Position numbers and translations under genes: made by a program
Origin: Glycomyces sp. YM15
GTDB lineage: Bacteria > Actinomycetota > Actinomycetes > Mycobacteriales > Micromonosporaceae
DNA: 64,000 nucleotides
Reading direction: 5' to 3'
Assembly (NCBI RefSeq): GCF_016918015.1
Contig: NZ_JAERMK010000017.1
Location: forward strand, 62,001 to 126,000
Notes under the pieces: model-generated
Database searches by the model: none
What the model saw: only the letters and a program-made list of their open reading frames with translations
What the model was told of the DNA's origin: nothing
Shown here: positions 6,224 to 36,640 of the stretch, in pieces
Layout: the number at the start of each line of letters is the position of its first letter
How positions within the stretch are numbered: position 1 is the first letter of the stretch

Positions 6224-6238
6224 ACCAAGGAGGCGACG

Positions 6239-7162
6239 ATGCCGGTCGACGAGTACTTCACCAAGATGATCGAAGGGCTGGAGGCGGCCACCGCCCCTGG
6301 CGGGAGCGAGGAGGAGAAGGGCGCGCTCGCCCACGCGTTCCTGCAGGAGTACATCGGTGACGCCCTCGCTTGGGACGCCAGCGGAGTCGCGATCGAGGAC
6401 ATCGCGATCGACGGCCCGCACGGCCCGATCCCGTTGCGTCTCTATCGCCCCGAGGACGGCGCGACCGGCGCGATCCTCTGGTGCCACGGCGGCGGTTTCC
6501 TCCACGGCGACCTCGACATGCACGAGGCCCACGTGGCGAGCATCGAATTCGCCCGCCGCGCCGGTGTCGCGGTGGCCTCGGTGGGCTACCGGCTCGCCGA
6601 CGACACCACCAAGTATCCGGTGCCGATCGACGACGTGCACGCCGCCTGGAACTGGTGGTGCGAGCAGCCGCTTCCCGAAGGCGTGCCGATCGCGCTCGGC
6701 GGCGCCAGCGCCGGGGCCGCTCTGGCCCTCGCGACCGCCCTGCGCACCAGGGACACCGGCGGCCGCGCGGCGGACGCGCTCCTGCTCGCCTACCCGTTCG
6801 CGCACTTCCCGAACCCGACCCTGAGCGTGGAGATGAACGCGGAGATGGCGGCAGTGCCGTTCCGGTTCACTCCCGAGAGCGTCGAGCACATGGTGCGGAA
6901 CTACGTGGGCCGCATCAGCGACGTGCCCGCGGACGCCCTGCCGGGCGCGGCCCGGCTCGACGGCCTGCCGCCCACCCGCATCGTGGCCTCGGAGTACGAC
7001 GACCTGCGCGCTTCGGCGGACCTGCTCGAGCGTCAGCTCCGCGAGGTCGGCGTACCGGTCGAGTCGTATCTGGCGCTGGGCATGACGCACGGGCACTTGA
7101 GCCACTCGCCGAACCTCCCGGAGGTCGGCCACTCCCTCGATTTCCTCGCGAAGTTCCTTTAG
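6239..7162 (+). CDS. Alpha/beta hydrolase, hormone-sensitive-lipase (HSL) family esterase
   Basis: 307 residues. The HSL oxyanion motif HGGG is at residues 83-86 (ILWCHGGGFLHGD). The nucleophile elbow is GGASAGAAL with Ser157, and the acid is in SEYDDLRAS (Asp254/255). The catalytic His is H284 in GMTHGHL. All parts of the triad are present, so it should hydrolyse small esters or lactones in the cytosol; no signal peptide is seen. A near-perfect Shine-Dalgarno (AAGGAGG) precedes the ATG. It is the third gene of the TetR-DUF89-hydrolase unit. Together with the divergent monooxygenase this looks like a small pathway that oxidises, hydrolyses and dephosphorylates a foreign or self-made compound, which is inference from neighbours. 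Confidence 0.88.
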   Translation: MPVDEYFTKMIEGLEAATAPGGSEEEKGALAHAFLQEYIGDALAWDASGVAIEDIAIDGPHGPIPLRLYRPEDGATGAILWCHGGGFLHGDLDMHEAHVASIEFARRAGVAVASVGYRLADDTTKYPVPIDDVHAAWNWWCEQPLPEGVPIALGGASAGAALALATALRTRDTGGRAADALLLAYPFAHFPNPTLSVEMNAEMAAVPFRFTPESVEHMVRNYVGRISDVPADALPGAARLDGLPPTRIVASEYDDLRASADLLERQLREVGVPVESYLALGMTHGHLSHSPNLPEVGHSLDFLAKFL

Positions 7163-11637: not shown

Positions 11638-11991
11638 TCAGCAGCGCTTGGTCTCGAACGAGGTCGAGAGACCGGCCAGCGCCCGCATCGGCCCGGTGAA
11701 GGCGTCGCAGCACAGGGCGTAGAGGTTGCTGCGGCCCTTGGGGGTCACGGTCACGAGGCCGAGTTCGCGCAGCGGCGCGAGGTGGTGCGAGACGAGGGTC
11801 TGCGCGAGGCCGGTCGCCTCGGTGAGCTCGCGCACGGTGCGGTCGCGCTCGGACAGGAGCATCACGATCGCCAGGCGGTTCTCGTCGGCGAGGGCCTTGA
11901 ACTGGGGTGCGAGGTCGCGGGCGCGTTCGACGAGCTTCTCGTCGGGCTCGGCGGTGACGTCGGTCAGCTCGATCTCGATCAGGCGGCTCAT
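11638..11991 (-). CDS. ArsR/SmtB-family metalloregulator
   Basis: 117 residues. Winged helix: APQFKALADENRLAIVMLL, then RTVRELTEATGLAQTLVSHHLAPLRELGLV and the wing VTPKGRSNLYAL. Three Cys lie at the C-terminal end (ALCCDAF and the last residue, FETKRC), which could form an As(III)-type sensor site different from the classical helix-4 CVC motif. It is divergent from a Cys-rich flavoprotein gene, and inverted repeats lie between. It probably controls that gene in response to arsenite or a similar thiol-reactive metalloid, an inference from the Cys residues and the neighbouring ars genes. Confidence 0.85.
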   Translation of the reverse strand: MSRLIEIELTDVTAEPDEKLVERARDLAPQFKALADENRLAIVMLLSERDRTVRELTEATGLAQTLVSHHLAPLRELGLVTVTPKGRSNLYALCCDAFTGPMRALAGLSTSFETKRC

Positions 11992-12012
11992 GCAACAAGT
12001 AAACCACAGAAC

Positions 12013-12055
12013 TTGCTATCAACAGCAATCACTGGTATTAATTATCTACGTTGAT
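12013..12055. promoter_or_regulatory. Inverted repeats in the arsR / flavoprotein divergent promoter
   Basis: TTGCT-6-AGCAA (12013-12028) overlaps one arm of a wider inverted repeat ATCAAC (12018-12023) / GTTGAT (12050-12055). The AT-rich stretch between fits a promoter region. It is the likely ArsR binding zone. Confidence 0.45.
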
Positions 12056-12093
12056 GTGATCGCGATCGGCGCGACCACCACAAGGAGGTCCTC

Positions 12094-13578
12094 ATGTCTC
12101 TCGCCACCCGCCGCCCCGCCAAGACCTGCGCCGTCATCGGCGCCGGCCCCGTAGGCCTCGCCGCCGCCGCGCACCTGCTCGAACGCGGCATCACCCCGAT
12201 CGTCCTCGAAGCCGGCCCCAGCGCCGGAGCGGCCATCGGCCAGTGGGGCCACGTCCGGCTCTTCTCACCATGGCGCTTCGACATCGACTCGGCCGCAAGG
12301 CGACTCCTCGAAGGCACCGGCTGGACCGAGCCCGACGCAGCAGGCCTGCCCACCGGCGCCGAACTCATCGGCCGGTACCTCGGGCCGCTCGCCACGGCGC
12401 TCGGCGACCACGTCCGCTACGGCACCCGCGTCACCGGCGTCGCCCGGCTCGGCGCGGACAAGACCCACAGCCTCGGACGCGAAGGCCGCGCCTACCTCCT
12501 GCGCACCGTCGACGAAGCAGGCGAAGGGTCCGATGTGATCACCGATGCGGTGATCGACGCCTCGGGTGTCTGGGGCCGCGCGAACCCGCTGGGCGCCAAC
12601 GGCCTCCCCGCCGCGGGCGAGACCGCCGACGCCCCCTGGCAGGTCGGCCCGCTCCCGGACGTGCTCGGCCGCGACCGCGAACGGTTCGCGGGCAAGCGGA
12701 CCCTCGTGGTCGGCGCGGGCCACTCCGCCGCGAACACGCTGCTGCTCCTGGCCGAACTCGCCGAAGCCGAGCCGGGCACCGAGGTCACCTGGGCGATCCG
12801 GGGCCGCAGCGCGGCGAAGGTCTACGGCGGCGGCTCCGCCGACGCGCTCCCCGCTCGCGGCACGATCGGGACCCGCCTCAAGGCACTCGTCGAATCCGGT
12901 GCCGTCGAACTCGTCACCGACTTCACGATCGACGCTTTCACCACGGCCGCAGACGGTTCGGTCGCCGTGACCGGCCAGACCGGCAGCCTCGCCGTGCGAC
13001 TCGAGACCGACAACGTCGCCGCCGCCACCGGATTCCGCCCCGACCTCGAGCTCCTGCGCGAACTGCGCCTCGACCTCGACGCCACCGTCGAAGCCCCGGT
13101 GAAGCTCGCGCCGCTCATCGACCCGAACTTCCACTCCTGCGGCACCGTCCCCGCCCATGGCGAAGCCGACCTCGCCCACCCCGACGAGGGCTTCTACATC
13201 GCCGGTGTGAAGAGCTACGGCCGCGCCCCGACCTTCCTGCTCGCCACCGGCTACGAGCAGGTGCGATCCATCGCCGCCGCGCTGGCGGGGGACCGCGAGG
13301 CCGCCGACCGGGTCGAGCTCGACCTGCCCGAGACCGGCGTCTGCTCCTCGAGCCGCGCGCTCGAGGCGACGAGCATCGCCGACGCGAGCGAAGGCTCGGG
13401 CTGCTGCGGTGCTTCGGCCGAGACCGCGGCCGAAGCCGGTCGCGGCACGGGCTGCGGCGCCGACGCGGCGAAGGAACCGGTGACGGTCGGGGCCCGCGGG
13501 CTGGCGACCGGCGTCCTGCACGGCCGCGCCGGTGAGCGTGTCGAGCTGCCCCAGGCGAAGTCCGGCTGCTGCGGCTGA
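12094..13578 (+). CDS. ArsO-like FAD/NAD(P)-dependent oxidoreductase with Cys-rich tail
   Basis: 494 residues, with a strong Shine-Dalgarno (AAGGAGG). The N-terminus holds the FAD motif CAVIGAGPVGLAAAAHLLERG; a second Rossmann motif, TLVVGAGHSAANTLLLLAELAE, binds NADPH; and the ATGFRPDL motif is typical of flavin monooxygenase/thioredoxin-reductase-like proteins. The unusual part is the tail after about residue 410: Cys417, the pair Cys437-438, Cys454 and the final pair Cys492-493, set in Gly/Ser/Ala-rich linkers. Vicinal thiols of this kind bind arsenite or other thiophilic metals. Relatives occur in ars operons under names such as ArsO. It faces an ArsR gene and likely detoxifies an arsenical by oxidation or acts as a metal-trapping reductase. 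The exact reaction is not known. Confidence 0.8.
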   Translation: MSLATRRPAKTCAVIGAGPVGLAAAAHLLERGITPIVLEAGPSAGAAIGQWGHVRLFSPWRFDIDSAARRLLEGTGWTEPDAAGLPTGAELIGRYLGPLATALGDHVRYGTRVTGVARLGADKTHSLGREGRAYLLRTVDEAGEGSDVITDAVIDASGVWGRANPLGANGLPAAGETADAPWQVGPLPDVLGRDRERFAGKRTLVVGAGHSAANTLLLLAELAEAEPGTEVTWAIRGRSAAKVYGGGSADALPARGTIGTRLKALVESGAVELVTDFTIDAFTTAADGSVAVTGQTGSLAVRLETDNVAAATGFRPDLELLRELRLDLDATVEAPVKLAPLIDPNFHSCGTVPAHGEADLAHPDEGFYIAGVKSYGRAPTFLLATGYEQVRSIAAALAGDREAADRVELDLPETGVCSSSRALEATSIADASEGSGCCGASAETAAEAGRGTGCGADAAKEPVTVGARGLATGVLHGRAGERVELPQAKSGCCG

Positions 13579-13587
13579 ACCGCCTGT

Positions 13588-13593
13588 TAACTT
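13588..13593 (+). promoter_or_regulatory. -10 box (TAACTT) of a leaderless transcript
   Basis: TAACTT ends 6 nt before ATG 13600 in the 21-nt gap after the flavoprotein gene. Confidence 0.45.
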
Positions 13594-13599
13594 GGGCGG

Positions 13600-14085
13600 A
13601 TGAGACGAGTGCTCATCACGGGCGTGTCAGGGGTCGGCAAGTCGACCGTCGTCGCGGCGCTGACGGCGCTCGGACACACGGCGGTGGACACCGACTACGG
13701 CGGCTACTGCTCACCCGGCCCGGACGTGGAGCCGCCGAAACCGACCGCCGAACCCGGGTGGGTCTGGAACGAGGCGCGCCTCCGGCGTCTGCTCGACGCC
13801 GGAGGCGACCCGCGCTTCGTGAGCGGCTGCGTCCCGAACCAGGGCCGCTTCTACGCCGACTTCGACCGGATCGTGCTGCTCAGCGCCGCACCCGAAGTGG
13901 TGCGGCGCAGACTCGTCGGCCGCTCCGGCAACGACTACGGGAAGACCCCCGGGGCACTCGCGCAGGCCTTGCGCGACCAGGCCGAGGTCGAGCCGCTGCT
14001 GCGCCCCGGGGCGACCCTCGAGATCGACACCGACGCACCGCTCGACGCCGTGATGCCGCGACTGCTGCGGCACGCACTCACATGA
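13600..14085 (+). CDS. P-loop NTP-binding protein, shikimate-kinase/AAA_18-like
   Basis: 161 residues. The Walker A loop is LITGVSGVGKSTVVAAL (residues 5-21, Lys14), and D-rich VDTDYGGYC follows at a position where small kinases bind their acceptor. An LID-like arginine stretch is present at VVRRRLVGRSGNDYGK. The size and layout fit small nucleotide or metabolite kinases of the adenylate/shikimate kinase group; no family-specific acceptor motif identifies a substrate. It lies 21 nt after the arsenic flavoprotein gene and has its own leaderless -10 box, so it may be a passenger rather than an ars gene. Confidence 0.7.
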   Translation: MRRVLITGVSGVGKSTVVAALTALGHTAVDTDYGGYCSPGPDVEPPKPTAEPGWVWNEARLRRLLDAGGDPRFVSGCVPNQGRFYADFDRIVLLSAAPEVVRRRLVGRSGNDYGKTPGALAQALRDQAEVEPLLRPGATLEIDTDAPLDAVMPRLLRHALT

Positions 14086-14165
14086 GCGCCAACCGGTGAG
14101 GCAAGCGCCTGTCGGCACCGCCGGGGGAGCAGGGGACCCGCTCGATCCCGTCCTTCGTCGCGAGG

Positions 14166-14867
14166 TCAGTAGCCGAGCAGTTCGTCGAGGAGGGCACGGA
14201 CGCGGCCGTCGAGTTCGTCGCGGATGGCGCGGACGCTCGCCCTGTCCTGACCGGCCGGGTCGGCCAGCTCCCAGTTCAAGTACCGCTTGCCGGGGTAGAC
14301 CGGGCAGGCGTCGCCGCAGCCCATCGTGACGACCACGTCCGAGGCCCGGACGGTCTCGTCGGTGAGCGGCTTGGGGAACTCCTTCGCGAGGTCCAACCCC
14401 ATCTCCGCCAGCACCTCGACGACCGCGGGGTTCACCTCCGCGGCCGGAGCCGAGCCGGCCGACCGCACCAGTACCCGCCCGGCGGCGTGATGGTCGAGCA
14501 GTGCGGCGGCCATCTGACTCCGGCCCGCGTTGTGGACGCACACGAACAGGACCTCGGGCCGGGTCTTGTCCCGCGCGCCGGTGACGGTGAGGGTCGCGTC
14601 CAGGCGCTCGGCGGCGAACCGTTCTGCCAGCACGTACAAGTGGCCGCGCACTCGCGCCGTCGCGGCGAGGACGAGATAGGAGTCCTCCAGGACCGCGCGG
14701 ACCGTTTCGGGCGAGAAGTACGCCGCGAAGCGGTCGGCGAGCCGGGCGGTCGAGGTGTTGAGCAGCTGGGCGGTTTCGGGCGGGATCGCGAGGCTGTCGG
14801 CGGTCATCGGGGTGGTCCTCTCATCGGCGGGAACGGCATCGGCGGACACGATCGACTCGATCGTCAT
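14166..14867 (-). CDS. arsC: Arsenate reductase with N-terminal three-helix bundle domain
   Basis: 233 residues if started at ATG 14867; ATG 14807 (residue 21) has a better-placed purine-rich site and is an alternative. Residues ~30-90 form a helical dimerisation domain (ETAQLLNTSTARLADRFAAY and following) seen in actinobacterial ArsC1'-like proteins. The rest is a low-molecular-weight-phosphatase-fold arsenate reductase: P-loop VCVHNAGRSQ with catalytic Cys110 and Arg116, then MGCGDACPVYPG and WELADPAGQD. In Corynebacterium the related enzyme works with mycothiol to reduce arsenate to arsenite. It is divergent from the arsR-acr3-arsC operon, giving this locus two arsenate reductases of different architecture. 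Confidence 0.88.
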   Translation of the reverse strand: MTIESIVSADAVPADERTTPMTADSLAIPPETAQLLNTSTARLADRFAAYFSPETVRAVLEDSYLVLAATARVRGHLYVLAERFAAERLDATLTVTGARDKTRPEVLFVCVHNAGRSQMAAALLDHHAAGRVLVRSAGSAPAAEVNPAVVEVLAEMGLDLAKEFPKPLTDETVRASDVVVTMGCGDACPVYPGKRYLNWELADPAGQDRASVRAIRDELDGRVRALLDELLGY

Positions 14868-14898
14868 CTAATTAGATAATCATCGAATATGAACGATG
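14866..14898. promoter_or_regulatory. Palindromes at the helical-domain arsC promoter
   Basis: ATCTAATTAGAT (14866-14877) is a perfect 12-bp palindrome overlapping the ATG at 14867. Next to it CATCG (14881-14885) and CGATG (14894-14898) form an inverted repeat. One of them is likely the operator of an ArsR protein. The overlap with the first ATG argues mildly for the downstream start. Confidence 0.45.
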
Positions 14899-15062
14899 GC
14901 CGAACTCCCGGTGACCGATTGCAGAGCCGGACGTCGCCGGCCGAGTGGGCCCCCAGGTCGTCCGGCCGTTCGCCCGCCGCGCAGGCGCATCGCGACTGAT
15001 GTGTGATCCAGGCAACTGGAGTGCTGCTTGTCGGCTACCTAGACGTCCGTCAAAATAGACGC

Positions 15063-15434
15063 ATGTCGAAGCAGCCTGTTCGTCTCACCCTTGCGACCGA
15101 CCTGGACGACTGTCGGGTCCCGCTGATCAAGGAACCCCTCAACGCCGATCAGGCCGAGCGGCTCGCCTCCTCCTTCAAGGCGCTCGGCGACCCCGTGCGG
15201 CTGCGGTTGCTCTCCCTGATCGCCTCTCACGAGGGCGGCCAGGCCTGCGTCTGCGACCTCACCGACGCCTTCGAGGTGTCGGCGCCGACCATCTCCCATC
15301 ACCTCAAGGTGCTCAAGGAGACCGGTCTGGTCTCCTCCGAACGCCGCGGCACCTGGGTCTACTACCGCGCCGAACCGGCCGCGCTCGAACTGCTCTCCAC
15401 CGTGCTCTCGGTCCCCCAGGGGGCCGCCGCGTGA
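15063..15434 (+). CDS. arsR: ArsR arsenite-responsive repressor
   Basis: 123 residues from ATG 15063. The winged helix includes ASSFKALGDPVRLRLLSLI, the helix with the As(III) site ACVCDLTDAF (Cys62 and Cys64, the classical C-x-C motif), recognition SAPTISHHLKVLKETGLV, and the wing SSERRGTWVYYR. Binding of arsenite to the cysteines releases DNA and opens the operon. There is no clear Shine-Dalgarno; a TAGACG direct repeat (15039-15044 and 15055-15060) lies just upstream and may be part of the operator. It overlaps acr3 by 4 nt (GTGA). Confidence 0.93.
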   Translation: MSKQPVRLTLATDLDDCRVPLIKEPLNADQAERLASSFKALGDPVRLRLLSLIASHEGGQACVCDLTDAFEVSAPTISHHLKVLKETGLVSSERRGTWVYYRAEPAALELLSTVLSVPQGAAA

Positions 15435-16525
15435 GCGCCGTCGCCGAAGCGAACGCCGCTTCCCCGACGCAGGTCAAGCTCTCGACCCTCGACAAGTACC
15501 TTCCGGTGTGGATCGGCGCGGCCATGCTCGCGGGCATCGCACTCGGCCAGTGGATCCCCAGCGTCGGCAAGGCGCTCAACGCGGTCCAGATCGGCGGCGT
15601 CTCACTCCCGATCGCCGCCGGGCTGCTGCTCATGATGTACCCGGTGCTGGCGAAGGTCCGCTACGACAAGCTCGACTCGGTGACCGCCGACAAGCGGCTC
15701 CTCGTCTCCTCGATCGTGCTGAACTGGCTCGTCGGCCCCGCGCTCATGTTCGCGCTCGCCTGGGTCTTCCTCCCGGACCTGCCCGAGTTCCGCACCGGCC
15801 TCATCATCGTGGGCCTCGCCCGCTGCATCGCCATGGTCATCATCTGGAACGACCTCGCCTGCGGCGACCGCGAAGCCGCCGCGGTCCTGGTCGCGCTGAA
15901 CTCGGTCTTCCAGGTCATCGCCTTCGGCGCGCTCGGCTGGCTCTACCTCGACGCCCTCCCCAGGTGGCTGGGACTGGACGCCACCGGACTGGAAGTCTCC
16001 GGCTGGGAGATCGCACTCAACGTCGCCGTGTTCCTCGGCGTCCCGCTCGCCGCCGGGTACCTGACCCGCCGCATCGGCGAGCGCCGCAAGGGCCGCGACT
16101 GGTACGAGTCGAGGTTCCTCCCCACGATCGGCCCGTTCGCGCTCTACGGCCTGCTCTTCACCATCGTGGTCCTCTTCGCCCTGCAGGGCGAGGCGATCCT
16201 GAACCAGCCCATGGACGTCGTGCGCATCGCACTCCCGCTGCTCGTCTACTTCGGGCTCATGTGGGCCGGGTCCTTCGCCCTCGGCAAAGGCATCGGCCTG
16301 AGCTACGAACGCTCCACCACGCTCGCGTTCACCGCCGCGGGCAACAACTTCGAACTCGCCATCGCCGTCGCGATCGCGACCTTCGGCGCCGCCTCCGGCC
16401 AGGCCCTGGCCGGGGTGGTGGGCCCGCTCATCGAGGTCCCGGTGCTCGTGGGCCTCGTCTACGTGAGCCTGTGGGCCCGCCGTTTCTTCAACGCCCGACC
16501 GCAAAGGAACACCGCGAATGTCTGA
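15431..16525 (+). CDS. acr3: ACR3-type arsenite efflux permease
   Basis: 364 residues with about ten hydrophobic segments. The family marker GLARCIAMVIIWNDLACGD carries the conserved Cys132, and the C-terminal motif VVGPLIEVPVLVGLVYVSLW matches the conserved Glu-containing helix of ACR3. It exports As(III) across the cell membrane using the proton gradient. It lies between arsR (GTGA overlap) and arsC (8-nt overlap) in a classic arsR-acr3-arsC operon, so it is translationally coupled and arsenite-induced. Confidence 0.95.
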   Translation: MSAVAEANAASPTQVKLSTLDKYLPVWIGAAMLAGIALGQWIPSVGKALNAVQIGGVSLPIAAGLLLMMYPVLAKVRYDKLDSVTADKRLLVSSIVLNWLVGPALMFALAWVFLPDLPEFRTGLIIVGLARCIAMVIIWNDLACGDREAAAVLVALNSVFQVIAFGALGWLYLDALPRWLGLDATGLEVSGWEIALNVAVFLGVPLAAGYLTRRIGERRKGRDWYESRFLPTIGPFALYGLLFTIVVLFALQGEAILNQPMDVVRIALPLLVYFGLMWAGSFALGKGIGLSYERSTTLAFTAAGNNFELAIAVAIATFGAASGQALAGVVGPLIEVPVLVGLVYVSLWARRFFNARPQRNTANV

Positions 16526-16919
16526 GAAGCCTTCCGTCCTCTTCGTCTGCGTCCACAACGCCGGACGCTCCCAGATGGCCGCCGGATGGCTCGCGCACCT
16601 CGCGGGCGACCGCATCGAGGTGCGCTCGGCCGGCTCGGCCCCCGCCGACCAGGTCAACCCCATCGCCGTCGAGGCCATGCGGGAGGTCGGCATCGACATC
16701 GCCGCGCAGCGCCCGAAGATCCTCACCGTGGACGCGGTCGAAGCCTCGGACGTGTGCATCACCATGGGCTGCGGCGACGTCTGCCCGGTCTTCCCCGGGA
16801 AGCGCTACCTCGACTGGACGCTGGACGACCCGGCCGGGCAGGGCATCGCGCCCGTCCGGGTCATCCGCGACGAGATCAAGGCCCGCGTCGAAGGCCTGAT
16901 CAAGGAACTGCTGCCTTAA
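16518..16919 (+). CDS. arsC: Arsenate reductase, low-molecular-weight-phosphatase fold
   Basis: 133 residues. The P-loop is FVCVHNAGRSQM with catalytic Cys11 and Arg17; further Cys at 80, 85 and 89 occur in DVCITMGCGDVCP, and the general acid lies in LDDPAGQ. It converts arsenate to arsenite for export by ACR3, probably with mycothiol or thioredoxin as partner; which cannot be decided by eye. It is the last gene of the operon. Its TAA overlaps the TAA of the convergent permease gene (TTAA at 16916-16919), leaving no room for a terminator between them. Confidence 0.93.
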   Translation: MSEKPSVLFVCVHNAGRSQMAAGWLAHLAGDRIEVRSAGSAPADQVNPIAVEAMREVGIDIAAQRPKILTVDAVEASDVCITMGCGDVCPVFPGKRYLDWTLDDPAGQGIAPVRVIRDEIKARVEGLIKELLP

Positions 16920-20647: not shown

Positions 20648-21364
20648 TTAGACGCGTTTGCGACCCCGAGCCTGGAACAGCACCGCCGTCGTCGGCACCG
20701 GGACCATCCGGACCGTCTCCCGGCGGCCGAGGAGCCAGCCCGCGAAGTCGGTCAACTTAGGGCGAATGCCGCGAAGCTCCAGCGCCACATCGTGCTTCGC
20801 GCACGCCGCGACGAGCACCTCGCGGTCCACCAGCAGACGCGGATCATGGACCCCTCGGGTGGCGATGCGCGGCAGACGTTCCGCGACACCGATGGCGAGC
20901 AGGCGGCACATCGCGGTCGCCGCGAGCGTGTCGATCACGAGCAGCCCGCCGGGGCGCAGCAGCCGACACGCCTCCGCGACCGCACGGCGGAGATCGGGCA
21001 CATGCTCCAAGATCTCGCCCGCCACCACGACCTCAGCGCACGCATCGGGCAGCGGCACCGCCAGCACGTCCCCCTGCACGCCCAGCACGCCGTGCTCGGC
21101 GGCCTGCCGCAGCGCCCCCAGCGAGAGGTCCACGCCGATGTGCGTGTAGCCCTTGCCGTCCAGATGCGGCGCCAGGAGTCCGGCCCCGCACCCGAGATCG
21201 ACCAGGACCGCGCCCTCGCCGGGAGCGGGCGGCACCAGAGCGGCCCGCGCCGCCGCCAGCCAGTGCAGCATTGCGAACACCCCTCGCGGCCGCCACCACT
21301 CCCCGGCCAGCCGGTCGTACATCGCAGGGTCATTGGGCGCCAGACGCTCAGGGCTTCCGCTCAT
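20648..21364 (-). CDS. Class I SAM-dependent methyltransferase, UbiG-like
   Basis: 238 residues from ATG 21364 (an upstream GTG-started frame is possible but overlaps the divergent promoter). SAM-binding motif I is VLVDLGCGAGLLAPHL, motif II/III GVDLSLGALRQAAEHGV, and the post-motifs VVAGEILEHVPDLRRAVAEACRLLRPGGLLVIDTL read like UbiG (O-methyltransferase of quinone synthesis). The C-terminal part ends DFAGWLLGRRETVRMVPVPTTAVLF. It is divergent, with a 26-nt gap, from a UbiA-acyl-CoA-dehydrogenase-type III PKS operon. It probably methylates a hydroxyl of that cluster's aromatic product. Confidence 0.85.
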   Translation of the reverse strand: MSGSPERLAPNDPAMYDRLAGEWWRPRGVFAMLHWLAAARAALVPPAPGEGAVLVDLGCGAGLLAPHLDGKGYTHIGVDLSLGALRQAAEHGVLGVQGDVLAVPLPDACAEVVVAGEILEHVPDLRRAVAEACRLLRPGGLLVIDTLAATAMCRLLAIGVAERLPRIATRGVHDPRLLVDREVLVAACAKHDVALELRGIRPKLTDFAGWLLGRRETVRMVPVPTTAVLFQARGRKRV

Positions 21365-21377
21365 CCCGTCAGCGTGG

Positions 21378-21383
21378 CACACT
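21378..21383 (+). promoter_or_regulatory. -10 box (CACACT) of the UbiA operon
   Basis: CACACT ends 7 nt before GTG 21391, fitting a leaderless mRNA; there is no Shine-Dalgarno. Confidence 0.45.
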
Positions 21384-21390
21384 GTGAGCC

Positions 21391-22257
21391 GTGAAGCAGG
21401 TTGCGGCGAGCTGGGCGCTGGTACGGGCCTCCCACCCGCTGCCCGCGGTCGCCGTCTCGGCCGTCGCGGCCGGGCTCGCCATCGGCGCCGACCGCGCGCC
21501 CGCCTCGGCCGCCGTCGCCGTCGCGGCCGTCTTCGCCGGGCAGCTCTCCGTCGGCTGGCTCAACGACCTCATCGACGCCCCCCGCGACGCACGGGTCGGC
21601 CGCACCGACAAGCCCTTGGCGGCCGACGAGATCCGACCCGCCTCGGTGCGCCTCGCATTCCTCGTCTCGGCGTTCGCCGCCGTGAGCCTCACCCTGTTCT
21701 CCGCCCCGCTCGCCGCCGCGGCGCATATCGCCGCCCTCGCCTCGGCCTGGGCCTACGACCTCGGCCTCAAGGCCACCGCCTTCTCGGTGGTGCCCTTCGC
21801 CGTCTCCTTCGGACTCCTGCCCGCGTTCCTCTCGAACGGCGCACCGTTCCCGCCGCCGTGGCTCATCGCGGCGGCCGCGACGCTCGGCTCCGCGGCGCAC
21901 TTCGTGAACGCGCTGCCCGACCTCGCCGACGACGCCGCCACCGGCGTGCGCGGCCTGCCCCACCGCCTCGGCCCGCTGATCAGCCGTTTCGCCACGGCGG
22001 CCCTGGTCCTGACCGCCTCCGTACTGCTGGTGTTCGGCCCGCACGGGCCGCCCTCGCCGCTCGGGCTGGCCACGGTGCCCGCGGCCGTGGGCATCCTCGT
22101 CGTCGGCTTCCTCCTGGACAACCGGCCCCGCTCCAGGGCCGCGTTCCGCGCGGTCATGCTCGTGGCCCTGATCGACGTCGCCTTGCTGCTCCACACTGGA
22201 ATATCCGTCGCGTTATCGGTTGGGGTTGATCGAGCCCGGAGTTCCGGGGGACACTGA
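21391..22257 (+). CDS. UbiA-family prenyltransferase
   Basis: 288 residues with about eight hydrophobic helices. The first Asp-rich motif is WLNDLIDAPRDARVGRTDKP (N-D-x-x-D-x-x-x-D) and the second is PDLADDAATGVRGLPHRLG. Both bind the Mg-diphosphate of the prenyl donor. The enzyme would attach a prenyl chain to an aromatic acceptor at the membrane. It is the first gene of an operon with an acyl-CoA dehydrogenase and a type III polyketide synthase, so the acceptor is likely a polyketide-derived phenol or quinone. No prenyl diphosphate synthase is in the window, so the donor comes from general metabolism. Confidence 0.88.
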   Translation: MKQVAASWALVRASHPLPAVAVSAVAAGLAIGADRAPASAAVAVAAVFAGQLSVGWLNDLIDAPRDARVGRTDKPLAADEIRPASVRLAFLVSAFAAVSLTLFSAPLAAAAHIAALASAWAYDLGLKATAFSVVPFAVSFGLLPAFLSNGAPFPPPWLIAAAATLGSAAHFVNALPDLADDAATGVRGLPHRLGPLISRFATAALVLTASVLLVFGPHGPPSPLGLATVPAAVGILVVGFLLDNRPRSRAAFRAVMLVALIDVALLLHTGISVALSVGVDRARSSGGH

Positions 22258-22262
22258 TCCGC

Positions 22263-23450
22263 ATGACTGCAGCAGAGAGCCCCGGTGAACGAGCGCTCGC
22301 GCTCGCCCGCGAACTCGCGCCCGACCTCGCCGAACGCGCCGCCGTCCACGACGAGCACGGCAGGTTCCCGAAAGCGGACTTCGCCGATCTGCGCGCGGCG
22401 GGCCTGTTCGGGCTCATGGTGCCCGAACGCCTCGGCGGATTCGGCGCCTCGTTCGCCGAGTACTCGCGCGTCGCCTCCGCCCTCGCGCGCGGCGCGGGCT
22501 CCACGGCGCTCGTCTTCAACATGCACGCCTCCGTCACCGGCGCGCTCGCACAGACCCCGGACGACCTCGTGCGCCTGCTCGGCGCCCCGAAGAGCTCCTT
22601 CGAAGCCCGCGACAAGGCGCTCGAAGCCGCGGCGGGCGGCGCGCTGTACGGCGTCGCGATGAGCGAACGCGGCAGCGGCTCGCGTCTTTCGAAGACCTCG
22701 ACCGCATACCGCCGCACCAACGCCGGCTACCGCATCACCGGCAGCAAGGCGTTCGTCTCCGGCGCCGGGCACGTCGACGCCTACCTCGTCACCGCCCGCG
22801 AAGCGGACGCCGAGGAACCGCAGGTCTCCTACTTCCTCGTCCCCGCCGGCGAAGGCATCCGCATCGAGGAGACCTGGGACTCGCTCGGCATGCGCGCCAC
22901 CGGAAGCCAGGACGTCCACTTCGACGTCGAAGTGGACGCCGACGCGCTCCTCGGCGGCGTCGAAGGCCTGACGCTCATGATCGCCGAAGCCATGCCGCAA
23001 TGGCTCGTGGCCTCCTACTCCGCCGTCTACGCGGGCGTCGCCCGCGCCGCCGTGGACGCCGCCGCCGAGCACCTCCGCAGCCGCGGCCTCGGCCGCCTCC
23101 CCGCCGCCCGCGCCAGGCTCGGCCGCGCCGACACCGCCGTGGCCGCCGCCGAACTCGTCGTCGCCGAGACCGCCGCGCGGATCGACACCGCCCCAGGCGA
23201 TCCCGAGACCAACCGCTGGGTCTGGCGGGCGAAGCTCACCGCCGGGGACACCGCCGTCCAAGTCGCCTCCTCCCTGCTCGAAGCCGCCGGCGCCTCCGCG
23301 TCCCGGCGCGGGCACCCCCTCGAACGCCTCTACCGCGACGCCCGCTGCGGCGCACTGCAACCGGCCACCTCCGACGTGTGCGCCGACTGGCTCGGCGTCG
23401 CCGCCCTCGGCGACGACCCCGACCACGACGCCGAGGTCCCGCGATGGTGA
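22263..23450 (+). CDS. Acyl-CoA dehydrogenase-like flavoprotein
   Basis: 395 residues. N-terminal helical domain (DLRAAGLFGLMVPERLGGFG), middle beta domain with FAD contacts (GVAMSERGSGSR, YRITGSKAFVSGAG, DSLGMRATGSQDVHFD), and a C-terminal helical domain (AKLTAGDTAVQVASSLLEAAG). It would oxidise an acyl thioester at the alpha-beta bond, or act as an oxygen-using relative. The usual catalytic Glu could not be assigned by eye. It starts 5 nt after ubiA and overlaps the polyketide synthase gene by 7 nt, so it probably prepares an unsaturated starter or modifies the polyketide chain. Confidence 0.85.
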   Translation: MTAAESPGERALALARELAPDLAERAAVHDEHGRFPKADFADLRAAGLFGLMVPERLGGFGASFAEYSRVASALARGAGSTALVFNMHASVTGALAQTPDDLVRLLGAPKSSFEARDKALEAAAGGALYGVAMSERGSGSRLSKTSTAYRRTNAGYRITGSKAFVSGAGHVDAYLVTAREADAEEPQVSYFLVPAGEGIRIEETWDSLGMRATGSQDVHFDVEVDADALLGGVEGLTLMIAEAMPQWLVASYSAVYAGVARAAVDAAAEHLRSRGLGRLPAARARLGRADTAVAAAELVVAETAARIDTAPGDPETNRWVWRAKLTAGDTAVQVASSLLEAAGASASRRGHPLERLYRDARCGALQPATSDVCADWLGVAALGDDPDHDAEVPRW

Positions 23451-24487
23451 CCGCCCGCATCGCCGGGATCGGCACCGCCTTGCCGCCCGCCTACAGCCAG
23501 GACGCACTGTGGGAAGACGTGTTCCGCTGGCACTTCTCCCGCAGCCGCGTCGCCCAGCGCATCTTCACCGCCTCCGCGGTGCGCTCCCGCCACACCGCCA
23601 CCGACCCTGCCGAGTTCAAGGCCGTCGCCGACTGGACCACCGCCGAACGCATGGCCCGCTACAGCGAGGTCGCCCCGCCCCTCGGCCTCGAAGCCGTCCG
23701 GAAGGCGCTCGCCGCCGCAGGGACCGACCCCGAGGAGATCGGCCTCCTCACCGTCGCCACCTGCACCGGCTACCGGACCCCCGGCCTCGACGTCGAACTC
23801 GCGCGGATGCTCCCGCTGCCCCCCGACGCCCGCAGGCTCCTCATCGGACACACCGGGTGCCACGCTGCGCTCCCGGCCCTCGCCGCCGCCGCCGACTACG
23901 TGGCGGCCCACGACCGCCCGGCCGTCCTGCTCTGCCTCGAACTCACCTCGCTGCACCTGCAGCCCGCGTCCATCGACCCCGAGCAGATGGTCTCGCACGC
24001 CCTCTTCGCCGACGCCGCCGCCGCGCTCGTCCTGCGCCCCGGCGCCGCACCGGGACTGCGCGTGGTCGACATCGCCTCCCGCACCGACACCGCCCGCCGC
24101 CATCAGATGACTTGGGACATCACCGATCTCGGCTTCCGCATGGGCCTCTCCCCGGAGGTGCCCGACGCCCTCGCCGAACATGTCGGCCCGCTCGTGAAAG
24201 AGCTCCTCGGCCGCCACGGCCACGACGTGCGCGACGTCGCCGCCTGGGCCGTCCATCCCGGCGGCCCCCGCATCCTCGACGCCATCGACGAAGGCCTCGA
24301 ACTCGAACCCGACGCGCTCGCGACCTCCCGGAACGTCCTCGCCGAACACGGCAACTGCTCATCGCCCACCGTGCTGCTCGTCCTGCAGGAGATCCTGGCC
24401 GCCGGACCCCCGGCCGGGCCGGTCGTGGCCCTCGCCTTCGGCCCCGGCCTCACCCTCTACGCGGCCCTCCTCGAACCCGACCGATAG
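23444..24487 (+). CDS. Type III polyketide synthase (chalcone-synthase family)
   Basis: 347 residues, the normal length for bacterial type III PKS. The catalytic triad is visible: Cys139 in LLIGHTGCHAALPALAAAA, His271 in AWAVHPGGPRIL and Asn304 in EHGNCSSPTVLLVL. VATCTGYRTPGLDVELARML is the usual N-terminal thiolase-fold motif. It would condense malonyl-CoA units onto an acyl-CoA starter and cyclise the chain to a resorcinol, pyrone or similar ring. Loading from the adjacent acyl-CoA dehydrogenase, prenylation by UbiA and methylation by the divergent UbiG-like enzyme give a plausible route to a prenylated methylated phenolic lipid or quinone. The product is inferred only. Confidence 0.9.
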   Translation: MVTARIAGIGTALPPAYSQDALWEDVFRWHFSRSRVAQRIFTASAVRSRHTATDPAEFKAVADWTTAERMARYSEVAPPLGLEAVRKALAAAGTDPEEIGLLTVATCTGYRTPGLDVELARMLPLPPDARRLLIGHTGCHAALPALAAAADYVAAHDRPAVLLCLELTSLHLQPASIDPEQMVSHALFADAAAALVLRPGAAPGLRVVDIASRTDTARRHQMTWDITDLGFRMGLSPEVPDALAEHVGPLVKELLGRHGHDVRDVAAWAVHPGGPRILDAIDEGLELEPDALATSRNVLAEHGNCSSPTVLLVLQEILAAGPPAGPVVALAFGPGLTLYAALLEPDR

Positions 24488-24540: not shown

Positions 24541-27234
24541 CTACGGCGAGAGCGTGAAGTTCGCTTCGGTCGCGTCGTCGGCGACGACGTCGACCGTTCC
24601 CGTCGCCGAGCCCGATTCGGCGTCCACCACCGTGAACTGCGACGATCCGGAACCGGCCGCGAAGGTCCAGTACACGCCGTCGTCGCCCGAGACGCCGTAG
24701 TGCCCGGAGGCGGTGTGGGCGACCACGGCGCCCGCGACCGGTGCGCCGCTCTGGTCGGTGACCGTGCCCCGCACGAGTCCGCCCGCGACCGGGGCGCAAT
24801 CCGGCGTGCCGCCGACGAGGACGTCGTCGATCTGCCACCAGTAACCCGACCGGTAGGCGTGGTAGTAGTGGAACTTGAGCTGGGCCGATGTTGCTGCGGC
24901 CCAGGTGCTCAGATCCACGGTGACCGTGGTCTCCCGCATCGGCTCCGTCGCCGTCCAGGCGTCCTCCCAGGTCTGGCCGCCGTCGGTGCTGATGGCGACT
25001 GTCGCCTGCGAATACGGGAGGATCCCGTTGAAGTCGGTGGCGAAGGTCAGGACCGGCGACGGGGCGCTCGACAGGTCGAACACGGGCGAGACGAGGTCGG
25101 TGTCCATGGTGCCGCCGCCGGGCGGCCGGGCGAAGGCGAAGCCGCCCGAGCCCGGGGTGCGGTTGCCGTAGTCGTAGGCGTCGTCGAAGGTCCACGGCTC
25201 GGGGCCGCGGTTGTCCACGGCCCACCCCAGCGGCGTTGTCCCGGTCTCGAAGCCGGTGCCCAGCGGGTCGAACGCGTAGCCGGGCGCAGTGCAGCCGCTC
25301 GCGACCGGCACTTCGACGTGCAGGTTCGCCGCGTTCGCCTCGATCCGGACGGTCTGGTACCCGCCGTATTCGGGCGCAACGACCAGCTCCACGCCGCCGG
25401 TGGGCAGCGTCAGCTCGAACGCTCCGGTGAGCGGATCGGTCTCGGTGGCGACCTCGCCGCCCGCCGAAGCCACGGTCGCGGCCAGCGGCCAGTCGTGACC
25501 GGAGCCGTCGACCACGGTACCGGTGACCACAGTGGTGGGAAGCGGGGTCAGCGCGGCGTCGAACACGGCGGTCTGCCCGGCCGCCACGGTCACCGTCCCG
25601 GTGGCCGTCTGGTAGCCGAATTTCTCCACGGTCACCGCGTGCTGCCCGGTGAGGGCGAACGTCACGGCGTACCGGCCGTCGGCGCCGGTGGTGGCGCGGC
25701 GGTCGAACGCCCCGTCGAAGACCAGCTCCGCGTCCGCCAGCGGCGAGCCGTCGGGACCGGTGACGGTGCCGGTGATGGAACCGGAATCGCCGTCGGGCAG
25801 GGCCTGTGCGGCCGCGAAGGCGTCGATGCGCCCGTGCCCGTGGACGTTGTTCGCCTCGGCGGTGCCGCCGCACTGGTCGTCCTCGGTGTATCGAGCAGAG
25901 CCGGTGAGCATCTCGTAGACGAGGCCGTAGTCGCCGCGGAGGGCGGGCTCGGCCTCCATCATCAGGGCGATGGCCCCGGCCACGTGCGGCGCGGCCATCG
26001 AGGTGCCGCTTTGCGAGCCGTAGCCGCTGCCGGGCACTGAGGAGAGGATGCCCGACCCGGGGGCTGACACGTCGGGCTTGACGCGCCCGTCGCTGGTGGG
26101 CCCGCGGGAGGAGAAGTCGGCGATCGCGCCGCTGGAGCCGTAGGCGCCCACGGCGATCACGTTCGCGTAGGCGCCGGGGGCGTTGGCGGTGAGGCAGACC
26201 GGACCGCTGTTGCCCGCGGCGAACACCGGGATGATCCCGGCGGCGTGCCAGAGGTTCACGATGTCCTCGAAGTACGGGTCGTCGTCGCCGTCCCGGCCCC
26301 AGGAGTTGTTGATGATGTCGGGTGCTTCGGCCGGGTCGGCGTTGTTCCCCTGCGAGTCGGTGGGCGCGACCATCCACTGCCCGGCCTTGAGCACCGATTC
26401 CATGCTGCTGCCGTAGTAGTTGGCGGCGATCCATTCGGCGCCGGGCGCGACACCGATCTGGTTGCCCGCGCCGTCGTCGCCGACCATGGTGCCGACGGTG
26501 TGGGTGCCGTGGTTGCTGAGGTCGCACGGGGCGGCGCCGCAGCGGCCTTCGACGTCGTAGAAGTTGTAGTCGTGGGTGAAGGTGCCGTCGCCGTTGTTGC
26601 CCCGGTACTGGTTCACCAGCGCCGGGTGGTCGTACTGGACGCCGGAGTCGATGCTGGCGACGACGACGCCTTCGCCGGTGACGCCGAGCTGGTCCCAGAC
26701 GGCGGGCGCGTTGATGTCGGCGACGCCCCAGCCCGCGGAGGCCGCATCGAGTGCGGTGTCGGCGGGTGCGACCGGTTCGACGGTCACGACTTCAGGGGTG
26801 TCGACGATGGCCGCGACCTCGTCGAACGCGGTGATGGTCTCGAGCAGTCCGGCATCGCCGCTCACCTTGAGCGTCGATGAGGCCCAATAGGACTCGTATG
26901 CCACGCCGGCTTCGTCGAGGGCGGCCCTCAGCTCGGCCTGGGAGGACTCCGCGAACGCCTTCGCCGCCTCGATGGCGGCCGCGCCCTTCTCGGCCTTGGT
27001 CTCGGCGTCGAATGCGGCGGAGTAGTCCGGGCCGCCGTCGAACTGGACCCAGAGTTCGGCTTCGCCCTCGGCGCGGATCTCGGCCAGCAGGTCGGGGTCG
27101 ACCTTCTGTTCGGTGAGTGCTGTCGCGTCGGTCTCGGTCTGCGCCAAGGCGGGTCCGGCACCGGCGAATGCCGATGATAGCGCTCCCATTAGCGAGACGG
27201 CGAGTACTTGACGCCATCGTTGTGTACCTGACAA
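24541..27234 (-). CDS. Secreted subtilisin-like serine protease (S8) with carboxypeptidase-regulatory-like and jelly-roll domains
   Basis: 897 residues from TTG 27234, chosen for the Shine-Dalgarno GAGGAG 6 nt upstream and the signal peptide that follows at once (cleavage near ALA-QT, residue 31). A propeptide (to about 160) precedes the S8 domain with Asp196 (VVASIDSGVQYDHPAL), His242 (NHGTHTVGTMVG), the oxyanion Asn342 (FAAGNSGP) and Ser412 (SGTSMAAPHVAGA). After ~440 come two carboxypeptidase-regulatory-like beta domains (GTVTGPDGSPLADAEL; GTVVDGSGHDWPLAATV), a MAM-like jelly roll ending WWQIDDVLVGG, and a third regulatory-like domain. It should be secreted to digest proteins and bind surfaces. 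The 5' leader holds a perfect stem-loop. Confidence 0.9.
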   Translation of the reverse strand: MSGTQRWRQVLAVSLMGALSSAFAGAGPALAQTETDATALTEQKVDPDLLAEIRAEGEAELWVQFDGGPDYSAAFDAETKAEKGAAAIEAAKAFAESSQAELRAALDEAGVAYESYWASSTLKVSGDAGLLETITAFDEVAAIVDTPEVVTVEPVAPADTALDAASAGWGVADINAPAVWDQLGVTGEGVVVASIDSGVQYDHPALVNQYRGNNGDGTFTHDYNFYDVEGRCGAAPCDLSNHGTHTVGTMVGDDGAGNQIGVAPGAEWIAANYYGSSMESVLKAGQWMVAPTDSQGNNADPAEAPDIINNSWGRDGDDDPYFEDIVNLWHAAGIIPVFAAGNSGPVCLTANAPGAYANVIAVGAYGSSGAIADFSSRGPTSDGRVKPDVSAPGSGILSSVPGSGYGSQSGTSMAAPHVAGAIALMMEAEPALRGDYGLVYEMLTGSARYTEDDQCGGTAEANNVHGHGRIDAFAAAQALPDGDSGSITGTVTGPDGSPLADAELVFDGAFDRRATTGADGRYAVTFALTGQHAVTVEKFGYQTATGTVTVAAGQTAVFDAALTPLPTTVVTGTVVDGSGHDWPLAATVASAGGEVATETDPLTGAFELTLPTGGVELVVAPEYGGYQTVRIEANAANLHVEVPVASGCTAPGYAFDPLGTGFETGTTPLGWAVDNRGPEPWTFDDAYDYGNRTPGSGGFAFARPPGGGTMDTDLVSPVFDLSSAPSPVLTFATDFNGILPYSQATVAISTDGGQTWEDAWTATEPMRETTVTVDLSTWAAATSAQLKFHYYHAYRSGYWWQIDDVLVGGTPDCAPVAGGLVRGTVTDQSGAPVAGAVVAHTASGHYGVSGDDGVYWTFAAGSGSSQFTVVDAESGSATGTVDVVADDATEANFTLSP

Positions 27235-27297
27235 GACGGCTCCTCGTGGTGACGGGTGCAGGCGCCGGGGTGGGCGGCGCCGATCGCGATCGAGATG

Positions 27298-27318
27298 CAA
27301 GGGAAGTCGATTCCCTTG
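27298..27318. promoter_or_regulatory. Stem-loop CAAGGGAA-5-TTCCCTTG in the subtilase leader
   Basis: A perfect 8-bp inverted repeat with a 5-nt loop, 64 nt upstream of the TTG start. It is less GC-rich than the terminators here and sits upstream of a gene, so an operator or mRNA leader element is more likely than a terminator. Confidence 0.5.
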
Positions 27319-35401: not shown

Positions 35402-36640
35402 ATGATCATCGACAGAGCCGAAGTCATCGTCACCAGTCCCGACCGGAACTTCGTCACGCTCAAACTCACCACCGACGACGGCCTTACCGGCCTCGGCGAC
35501 GCGACCCTGAACGGCCGCGAGCTCGCCGTCGTCGCCTACCTCAAGGACCACGTGGTCCCGCTGCTGCTGGGCCGCGACGCCCACCGCATCGAGGACACCT
35601 GGCAGTTCCTCTACCGCTCCGCGTACTGGCGGCGCGGCCCCGTCACCATGGCCGCGATCGCCGCAGTCGACATGGCGCTGTGGGACATCAAGGGCAAGGC
35701 CGCCGGGATGCCCGTCTACCAACTCCTCGGCGGCGCCTCCCGCACCGGCCTCCTCGCCTACGGCCACGCTTCCGGCAAGACCACCGAGGAACTCTTCGAC
35801 TCCATTCGCTCCCACCAGGAGCAGGGCTACCGGGCCCTCCGCGTCCAGACCGGCGTCCCCGGCCTCAGATCCATCTACGGCATCGCCTCGAACGCCACCT
35901 TCGCGGCGATGCAAGGCGTCCGCTACGATCACGAACCCGCCCAGCGCGGCGCACTGCCCAATGAGGAGGACTGGGACACCCGCGCCTACCTGCGGCACGT
36001 CCCCAGCGTCTTCGAAGCCGTCCGGAACGAATTCGGTCCCGAACTCCCGCTGCTCCACGACGCCCACCACCGGCTCACCCCGATCCAGGCCGCGAAGCTC
36101 GGCACGTCCCTCGAACCGTACGACCTGTTCTGGCTCGAGGACGTCACCCCGGCCGAGAACCAGGAGGCCCTGCGTCTCGTCCGCCGGCACACCACCACCC
36201 CGCTCGCGATCGGCGAAATCTTCAACACCGTCTGGGACTACCAGCAGATCATCCGCGAACAGCTCATCGACTACGTCCGCTCCGCCGTCACCCACACCGG
36301 CGGCATCAGCCACCTCAAGAAGATCCTCGACTACGCCGCGCAGTACCAGGTCAAATCCGGCATGCACGGCCCCACGGACATCTCACCCGTGGGCATGGCC
36401 GCCGCGATGCACCTGGGCCTCGCCGTCCACAACTTCGGCATCCAGGAGTACATGCGGCACGGCGCCAAGACCGACCAGGTCTTCCAGCAGTCCTTCACCT
36501 GGACCGACGGCCGTCTCCACCCCGGCGACCAACCGGGCCTCGGCGTCGAACTCGACACCGACGAGGCCGGGAAGTACCCGTACGTCCAGGCCTACCTGCC
36601 CTACAATCGCCTCGCCGACGGGACCGTCCACGACTGGTGA
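35402..36640 (+). CDS. manD: D-mannonate dehydratase, ManD/RspA type (enolase superfamily)
   Basis: 412 residues, Shine-Dalgarno AGGAG. ManD features: the N-terminal capping part [21 protein letters not shown], the long loop [34 protein letters not shown] (short: [16 protein letters not shown]), the catalytic Tyr/Arg region of RVQTGVPGL, metal ligands [26 protein letters not shown] and IGEIFNT, and the His in [16 protein letters not shown]. It dehydrates D-mannonate to 2-keto-3-deoxygluconate in glucuronate breakdown; some relatives have low activity on other acid sugars. It is a single gene opposite its LacI regulator. Confidence 0.92.

What the first reader, a model, noticed from the sequence alone, without database searches (positions are those of the whole stretch)
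20648..24487. Compact UbiA / acyl-CoA dehydrogenase / type III PKS / methyltransferase cluster
Seen: four genes in 3.8 kb. The UbiA-dehydrogenase-PKS operon is coupled (5-nt gap, 7-nt overlap) and diverges 26 nt from a UbiG-like methyltransferase. All catalytic motifs are intact (PKS Cys139/His271/Asn304; UbiA NDxxDxxxD and DxxDD). Known: type III PKSs make resorcinols, pyrones or quinone precursors, and UbiA enzymes prenylate aromatics at the membrane. Inferred: together they could make a prenylated, methylated phenolic lipid or quinone. The acyl-CoA dehydrogenase is an uncommon partner and may set an unsaturated starter unit.
Basis: partly seen in the sequence, partly recalled or inferred. 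Interest (0 to 1): 0.7.

Follow-up and report, generated by a model that had tools for sequence, protein, structure and literature searches.

The report
Glycomyces copy of a known phenolic-lipid cluster
Four neighbouring genes in a soil bacterium most likely build a methylated, prenylated phenolic lipid of a type already known from related bacteria; the less-explained part is an enzyme labelled as a fatty-acid dehydrogenase that looks more like a ring-oxidising enzyme.

Summary
In detail: four intact genes with the stated coordinates and spacings. The host is a Glycomyces. The cluster is the Glycomyces form of the known agq/los type III PKS cluster. Close PKS homologues occur in 66 of 101 relative genomes. 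27 of 40 non-Glycomyces loci read UbiA<-MT->ACAD->PKS, the gene order of the Micromonospora loseolamycin locus. In the genus that I infer to be Phytohabitans, the published agqA-D orthologues fall on these genes. Actinoplanes missouriensis makes 6-alkyl-4-O-dihydrogeranyl-2-methoxyhydroquinones. The 'acyl-CoA dehydrogenase' idea is not supported: 66 of 66 aligned rows have no Glu at the catalytic position. Three of 15 ACAD-less loci, in three lineages, carry an MhpA-type FAD hydroxylase gene beside the cluster; 0 of 45 ACAD-bearing loci do. I infer that the ACAD-like protein is the ring hydroxylase, and that an unrelated hydroxylase replaces it in some lineages. No chemistry was tested.

The parts
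20648..21364 (-). class I SAM methyltransferase (AgqC position by gene order); the ORF can be extended to a GTG at 21382
   Evidence: Pfam Methyltransf_11 3.2e-20; TIGR01983 UbiG 81 bits, below cut-off 103; beside the PKS in 39 of 40 non-Glycomyces loci, the 40th (L082) being cut by a contig end
21391..22257 (+). UbiA-family membrane prenyltransferase (AgqD position; O-prenyltransferase in A. missouriensis)
   Evidence: Pfam UbiA 1.4e-24; aspartate motifs conserved in 12 sequences; beside the PKS in 33 of 40 loci
22263..23450 (+). acyl-CoA-dehydrogenase-fold flavoprotein without the catalytic Glu (AgqB position by gene order), probable flavin-dependent ring hydroxylase
   Evidence: Pfam Acyl-CoA_dh_M/N/2; no Glu in the GALQPAT columns in 66 of 66 rows, 56 distinct sequences; two own-genome paralogues keep E-G-T there; top PDB profile hits 5z8t/5gj7, 3m9v/4kcf, 3mxl nitrososynthase, with true dehydrogenases close behind
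23444..24487 (+). type III PKS (AgqA/LosA type), probable alkylresorcinol synthase
   Evidence: Pfam Chal_sti_synt_N/C; C139/H271/N304 invariant in 21 sequences; nearest PDB relatives Pks11 and Pks18; homologues at the los/agq locus

Best explanation
A Glycomyces member of the agq/los phenolic-lipid cluster. The PKS extends a long-chain acyl-CoA with three malonyl-CoA to a 5-alkylresorcinol. The ACAD-fold flavoprotein, using reduced flavin from a reductase coded elsewhere, hydroxylates the ring next to the alkyl chain. The methyltransferase O-methylates the product to an alkyl-methoxyhydroquinone. The UbiA protein O-prenylates it in the membrane. Inferred: each enzyme's reaction in Glycomyces, the hydroxylase role of the ACAD-like protein, and the exact product.
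For: Gene order shared with the loseolamycin locus, DisA-RadA-hyp-UbiA-MT-ACAD-losA-hyp-hyp-CarD-IspD: 27 of 40 non-Glycomyces loci read UbiA< MT> ACAD> PKS>. DisA and IspD lie within 15 kb on opposite sides of the PKS in 27 of 44 non-Glycomyces PKS genomes (34 entered; in the other 10, searches show no DisA on the PKS contig). LosA activation gave alkylresorcinols. Phytohabitans agqA-D tags map to these genes: the eight tag/position pairs I could make give 896-954 genes per Mb. The A. missouriensis lipid is 6-alkyl-4-O-dihydrogeranyl-2-methoxyhydroquinone; its UbiA-like enzyme O-prenylates; AgqA makes alkylresorcinols that are then prenylated and hydroxylated. The ACAD homologue was never found without the PKS (51 of 51 genomes) and lacks the Glu. 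Where the ACAD is missing, 3 of 15 loci carry an MhpA-subfamily FAD hydroxylase beside the cluster, against 0 of 45 loci with the ACAD.
Against: No product is known from Glycomyces. The agq primary paper was not held, so the protein family of AgqB was not seen in print, and which of B, C and D is which rests on gene order; that AgqB is the hydroxylase is recalled. The Phytohabitans naming is inferred; two of its genomes have one PKS hit more than the paper counts. Only losA was activated in the loseolamycin work, and the products were untailored alkylresorcinols. The cluster has no flavin reductase. 15 of 66 PKS genomes lack the ACAD, and 12 of 15 ACAD-less loci show no such hydroxylase beside the cluster. 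True dehydrogenases follow the best monooxygenase hits by only about 6 bits in the PDB profile search and are interleaved with them in the single-sequence search. The best NCBIfam match is FadE16, named acyl-CoA dehydrogenase (185 bits, cut-off 600). The AlphaFold model of the ACAD was poor (mean pLDDT 65.8).
Confidence: 0.8

Rival explanations
1. The ACAD is a true acyl-CoA dehydrogenase that makes an unsaturated starter or chain for the PKS.
For: Pfam ACAD domains; best NCBIfam hit FadE16 is named acyl-CoA dehydrogenase; true dehydrogenases are close behind the monooxygenases in the PDB search; some loseolamycins differ in saturation.
Against: No Glu at the catalytic columns in 66 of 66 rows, while two of four alignable own-genome paralogues keep E-G-T. 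The saturation differences arose in Streptomyces albus with only losA activated, and the authors ascribe them to the PKS accepting varied host fatty acids. An alternative Glu on helix G was judged by eye only.
Confidence: 0.12
2. The cluster makes a redox-active quinone (an electron carrier) rather than an O-prenylated hydroquinone lipid.
For: A review passage tells of alkylquinones made through type III PKSs in Streptomyces griseus and Myxococcus xanthus and of polyketide quinones in M. tuberculosis; hydroxylation and methylation would give a quinol. 7 of 40 loci show no UbiA at the locus, at least one because of a contig end.
Against: The A. missouriensis enzyme prenylates a hydroquinone oxygen, which would block redox cycling.
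Confidence: 0.15
3. The FAD hydroxylases beside ACAD-less clusters are chance neighbours, and ACAD-less clusters simply skip hydroxylation.
For: 12 of 15 ACAD-less loci have none beside the cluster. In seven ACAD-less genomes a close homologue lies on another contig or over 100 kb away. Three PKS-minus genomes have one too. The G009 case was found before the comparison was made, so the Fisher value 0.013 is not blind.
Against: Three cases in three lineages (a Glycomyces, G065 of another family, a Thermoleophilaceae MAG), all NF004829 subfamily as best match, in two arrangements; ATGA overlap with the PKS in G009. Control: no PF01494 gene within 9 kb of the PKS in 16 ACAD-bearing genomes, as far as the capped list shows.
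Confidence: 0.2

Closest known systems
agq cluster of Actinoplanes missouriensis 431 (alkyl-O-dihydrogeranyl-methoxyhydroquinones; Awakawa et al. 2011, primary paper not seen)
   Same: type III PKS plus three tailoring genes; the agqA-D orthologues reported for Phytohabitans fall on the same four-gene set, as far as my naming of those genomes holds
   Different: In the ten Glycomyces loci looked at, the UbiA/MT pair is inverted (MT diverges, UbiA leads the operon); in the window's genome DisA and the best IspD lie on other contigs; product not tested
loseolamycin (los) locus of Micromonospora endolithica, BGC0002362 (PMC7587189; number from PMC11965639)
   Same: UbiA, MT, ACAD and type III PKS adjacent, in the order found in 27 of 40 loci
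   Different: Only losA was activated there; tailoring genes not shown to act; Glycomyces order differs
srs operon of Streptomyces griseus (alkylquinones through SrsA; PKS, MT and FAD hydroxylase gene content recalled)
   Same: Alkylresorcinol made by a type III PKS, then oxidised
   Different: Hydroxylase of another family and no UbiA (recalled)
ACAD-fold flavin monooxygenases: nitrososynthase 3mxl, 3m9v/4kcf (KijD3 by recall), DnmZ, DszC
   Same: Among the best solved relatives of the ACAD-like protein; no Glu in the matching segment of 3mxl and 3m9v/4kcf, where an RDxxxG segment is followed by Q-P
   Different: Amino-sugar or thiophene substrates (recalled); the Q-P is in register only with a one-residue insert in 3m9v/4kcf and is out by one in 3mxl
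MhpA-type 3-(3-hydroxyphenyl)propionate hydroxylases (NF004829 subfamily)
   Same: Sit beside three ACAD-less clusters
   Different: Not in the window's cluster; unrelated fold to the ACAD-like protein

Membership tests
agq/los cluster | AgqA/LosA-type PKS orthologue | tested here: met
   52-62% identical to the PKS of the non-Glycomyces genomes with this locus, and 55-58% in the genus inferred to be Phytohabitans; AgqA and LosA sequences themselves were not compared
agq/los cluster | ACAD, MT and UbiA genes adjacent to the PKS | tested here: met
agq/los cluster | product alkyl-O-dihydrogeranyl-methoxyhydroquinone or alkylresorcinol | not testable with these tools
   needs chemistry
acyl-CoA dehydrogenase (enzyme activity) | catalytic Glu at the MCAD-type position (position recalled) | tested here: not met
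   no Glu in 66 of 66 rows, 56 distinct sequences; own-genome paralogues L133 and L134 have it
acyl-CoA dehydrogenase (enzyme activity) | alternative Glu on helix G (isovaleryl/long-chain type, recalled) | tested here: inconclusive
   region reads MPQWLVAS or MPHWLVAS in the common rows; position judged by eye
group D flavin monooxygenase | sequence closer to ACAD-fold monooxygenases than to dehydrogenases | tested here: inconclusive
   ranks 3-5 of the PDB profile search are 3m9v, 4kcf and nitrososynthase (114-116 bits); butyryl-CoA dehydrogenase follows at 108; ranks 1-2, 5z8t/5gj7, are labelled acyl-CoA dehydrogenase type 2 domain protein
group D flavin monooxygenase | uses reduced flavin from a reductase and oxygenates its substrate | not testable with these tools
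   no reductase among the four genes; needs assay
UbiG equivalog | TIGR01983 above cut-off | tested here: not met
   81 bits against 103
MenA (menaquinone route) | MenA-type model above cut-off | tested here: not met
   NF004751 32 bits against 264
DpgA | NF042429 above cut-off | tested here: not met
   140 bits against 425

The most novel reading that the evidence does not exclude
The ring hydroxylation of the agq/los pathway is done by a Glu-less ACAD-fold flavin monooxygenase that is annotated as acyl-CoA dehydrogenase, and in several lineages (Glycomyces G009, G065 of another family, a Thermoleophilaceae MAG) it has been replaced by an unrelated MhpA-type FAD hydroxylase. By the ring numbering of the A. 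missouriensis lipid the new hydroxyl lies beside the alkyl chain, the same place that MhpA hydroxylates its own substrate (MhpA regiochemistry recalled). This would be repeated non-homologous replacement within one small pathway.
Probability: 0.55. Interest if true: 0.5.

Novelty: new member of a known kind. Interest (0 to 1): 0.35.

Why it matters
It places a widespread but little-studied actinobacterial cluster (66 of 101 relative genomes) on a known pathway, suggests that the agq and loseolamycin labels in genome-mining papers can refer to the same genes, and gives a testable role to a protein family that automatic annotation calls acyl-CoA dehydrogenase.

Tried and rejected
Menaquinone, UbiG and DpgA readings: rejected on model scores. 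The 30% PKS paralogues of relatives: the one in L094 lies beside two enoyl-CoA-hydratase-family genes (DpgA-like surroundings, recalled) and the one in L097 among polysaccharide genes, so neither is an agq copy; the other seven such loci were not scanned. AlphaFold model of the ACAD: mean pLDDT 65.8, middle domain not resolved, not used. PKS model good (93.1) but compared with no library. Neighbours of the close FAD homologues away from the PKS: ten neighbours from seven genomes scanned, none a dioxygenase of a phenylpropionate pathway; other neighbours not scanned. FAD tree: the homologues of ACAD-less genomes are not one clade (4 label changes) and three PKS-minus genomes lie among them. The 8 of 15 against 0 of 51 comparison was made after seeing the tree, so I do not lean on it. 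Search for A. missouriensis by the genus of G031: three genomes only, judged the wrong genus, not followed. Paper searches for AgqA with polyketide gave two papers, neither describing AgqB in the passages seen.
Full report
Observation. Spacings are as stated: 5-nt gap, 7-nt overlap, and 26 nt between the divergent starts if the methyltransferase begins at the ATG at 21364; other methyltransferases of the family support that start. Pfam finds UbiA, ACAD domains, chalcone-synthase-like N and C domains and a class I methyltransferase. PKS C139/H271/N304 are invariant in 21 sequences and the UbiA aspartates in 12. Named relatives show that the host is a Glycomyces (PKS 93% identical to G. luteolus).

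Distribution. Of 101 relative genomes (22 of them Glycomyces), 66 hold a close PKS homologue (best E 4.8e-59 or lower; list taken by hand, used). The ACAD homologue at E<=1e-60 is in 51 of 101; all 51 are among the 66. 20 of 22 Glycomyces have the ACAD; G009 and G012 lack it. In a phylum-wide sample 20 of 296 genomes match the PKS at E<=1e-60. I fetched 40 non-Glycomyces loci, one per genome, from the 44 such PKS genomes: 27 read UbiA< MT> ACAD> PKS>, 6 lack the ACAD, 4 have only MT and PKS, 2 lack UbiA, and 1 (contig end) has only ACAD and PKS. Ten Glycomyces loci (eight named, plus G009 and G012, picked because they lack the ACAD) read MT< UbiA>, with ACAD in eight. Of the other named loci, L010 (Saccharopolyspora hirsuta) and L013 (Streptosporangiales MAG) have the full UbiA< MT> ACAD> PKS> set; L012 shows no MT; L014, L016, L017 and L018 no UbiA; L015 only MT and PKS; L019-L023 (mostly Planctomycetota) only the PKS.

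Identity. The loseolamycin paper (PMC7587189; parts 1 and 2 of 4 of the text, and passages with part of the gene table) lists DisA, RadA, a hypothetical gene, UbiA, methyltransferase, acyl-CoA dehydrogenase, losA, two hypothetical genes, CarD, IspD. In the relatives DisA and IspD lie within 15 kb of the PKS on opposite sides in 27 of 34 genomes entered; 10 further PKS genomes were not entered because DisA was not on the PKS contig, so 27 of 44. Activating losA gave alkylresorcinols. A paper on Phytohabitans (PMC7692728, passages) calls t3pks-1 an agqA orthologue with agqB-D orthologues beside it. The genus of G051 has six genomes, of 10.7, 9.6, 11.3, 9.9, 9.4 and 10.1 Mb; four fit the four published sizes (10.71, 9.61, 11.34, 10.15). 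Eight locus-tag numbers set against PKS positions give 896-954 genes per Mb, and in each of the four the t3pks-1 tag fits only the PKS of our type. Against this: G394 and G397 have one hit more than the paper's type III counts, four hits in all stay unassigned, and two of the printed agqB-D tag ranges are misprinted. The tags of agqB-D lie on the side where ACAD, MT and UbiA are (seen directly in L073 for G051; for the others from strands). I therefore read agqA-D as PKS, ACAD, MT, UbiA. The A. missouriensis lipid is 6-alkyl-4-O-dihydrogeranyl-2-methoxyhydroquinone (PMC3569393, passage); the UbiA-like enzyme acts on oxygen (PMC3227686, passage); another passage says the alkylresorcinols of AgqA are prenylated and hydroxylated (PMC10896814). 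The primary agq paper is not in the library and was not seen.

The ACAD-like protein. In 66 aligned rows (56 distinct sequences) the segment that carries the catalytic Glu in dehydrogenases has no Glu in any row; 65 of 66 read Q-P or H-P there, L014 M-P. In the window's own genome two of four alignable paralogues keep E-G-T (L133, L134) and two do not (L136, L139); three of the eight PF02770 hits gave no usable match. The PDB profile search ranks 5z8t/5gj7 (labelled acyl-CoA dehydrogenase type 2 domain protein; activity unknown to me), 3m9v/4kcf and nitrososynthase first, but butyryl-CoA and other dehydrogenases follow from 108 bits, with DszC at 106 and DnmZ at 101; in the single-sequence search the two kinds are interleaved. 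NCBIfam's best match is FadE16, far below cut-off. So the missing base speaks against a dehydrogenase; similarity alone does not decide for an oxygenase.

Replacement. In ACAD-less Glycomyces G009 an MhpA-subfamily FAD hydroxylase gene (NF004829, 586 bits, cut-off 390) begins inside the PKS stop codon (ATGA). Checking the draft I found two more: in G065 (another family) a gene fragment running off the contig lies just upstream of, and divergent from, the MT (L081:7855-8496, best NCBIfam match NF004829, 160 bits; 35% identical to the G009 protein); in the Thermoleophilaceae MAG locus L015 another fragment lies likewise (5-412, minus strand, NF004829 104 bits). Being fragments, both score below the cut-off. 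By tblastn with two of these proteins, 3 of 15 ACAD-less loci and 0 of 45 ACAD-bearing loci have such a gene (60 loci: 16, 40, 4; Fisher 0.013, not blind for G009, kinship not corrected). With PF01494 as the probe, 2 of 15 ACAD-less genomes have a hit within 2 kb of the PKS (11 genomes checked by script, four by eye), and of 16 ACAD-bearing genomes the nearest is 9.4 kb away (G015); both lists are capped. Genome-wide, homologues of the G009 protein at E<=1e-110 are in 8 of 15 PKS+ACAD-, 3 of 51 PKS+ACAD+ and 3 of 35 PKS- genomes (Fisher 1.3e-4; this cut-off was set after seeing the list); at the search's own 1e-50 they are in 9 of 15, 8 of 51 and 8 of 35 (Fisher 0.0014 for the first two). Three of the eight are one family. 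One of the three ACAD-bearing exceptions, G006, has its ACAD in two reading-frame pieces. The lipid's extra oxygen sits beside the alkyl chain, where MhpA oxygenates its substrate (recalled).

Mechanism proposed: resorcinol synthesis, ring hydroxylation by the ACAD-like protein, O-methylation, O-prenylation. Only the genes and their conservation are shown; the chemistry in Glycomyces is inferred from agq and los.

Verdict. A new member of a known kind, with an inverted UbiA/MT pair. One paper notes a loseolamycin-like cluster in all Salinispora strains it studied, without a reported product (PMC12838356, passage). A search for papers with alkylresorcinol, acyl-CoA dehydrogenase and polyketide synthase gave six; of these I opened only PMC7587189, which assigns the dehydrogenase no role in the parts seen.

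Noticed in passing
window 11638-16919: ArsR-type regulator, pyridine nucleotide-disulphide oxidoreductase, SBF-family transporter and low-molecular-weight phosphatase-fold protein close together; looks like an arsenic-resistance set (recalled).
   Followed up: partly
L103:1815-4239 and 5525-6571 (genome G074): A second, 42% identical type III PKS sits with two ACAD-like genes (33% and 30%) and two methyltransferase hits; both ACAD-like proteins also lack the Glu motif.
   Followed up: partly
L011:4671-6004 (Glycomyces lechevalierae) and G006:C1:504334-505667: The ACAD-like gene is in two reading-frame pieces in these records; gene decay or sequencing error not decided. G006 also holds an FAD hydroxylase homologue.
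   Followed up: no
window 24541-27300 (-): Subtilase-family protease with carboxypeptidase-regulatory-like domains directly downstream of the PKS, convergent.
   Followed up: no
window 35402-36640 (+) and L109:8383-9621: A mandelate racemase/muconate lactonising enzyme-type gene lies in the window and another just after the PKS/FAD pair in G009; link unknown.
   Followed up: no
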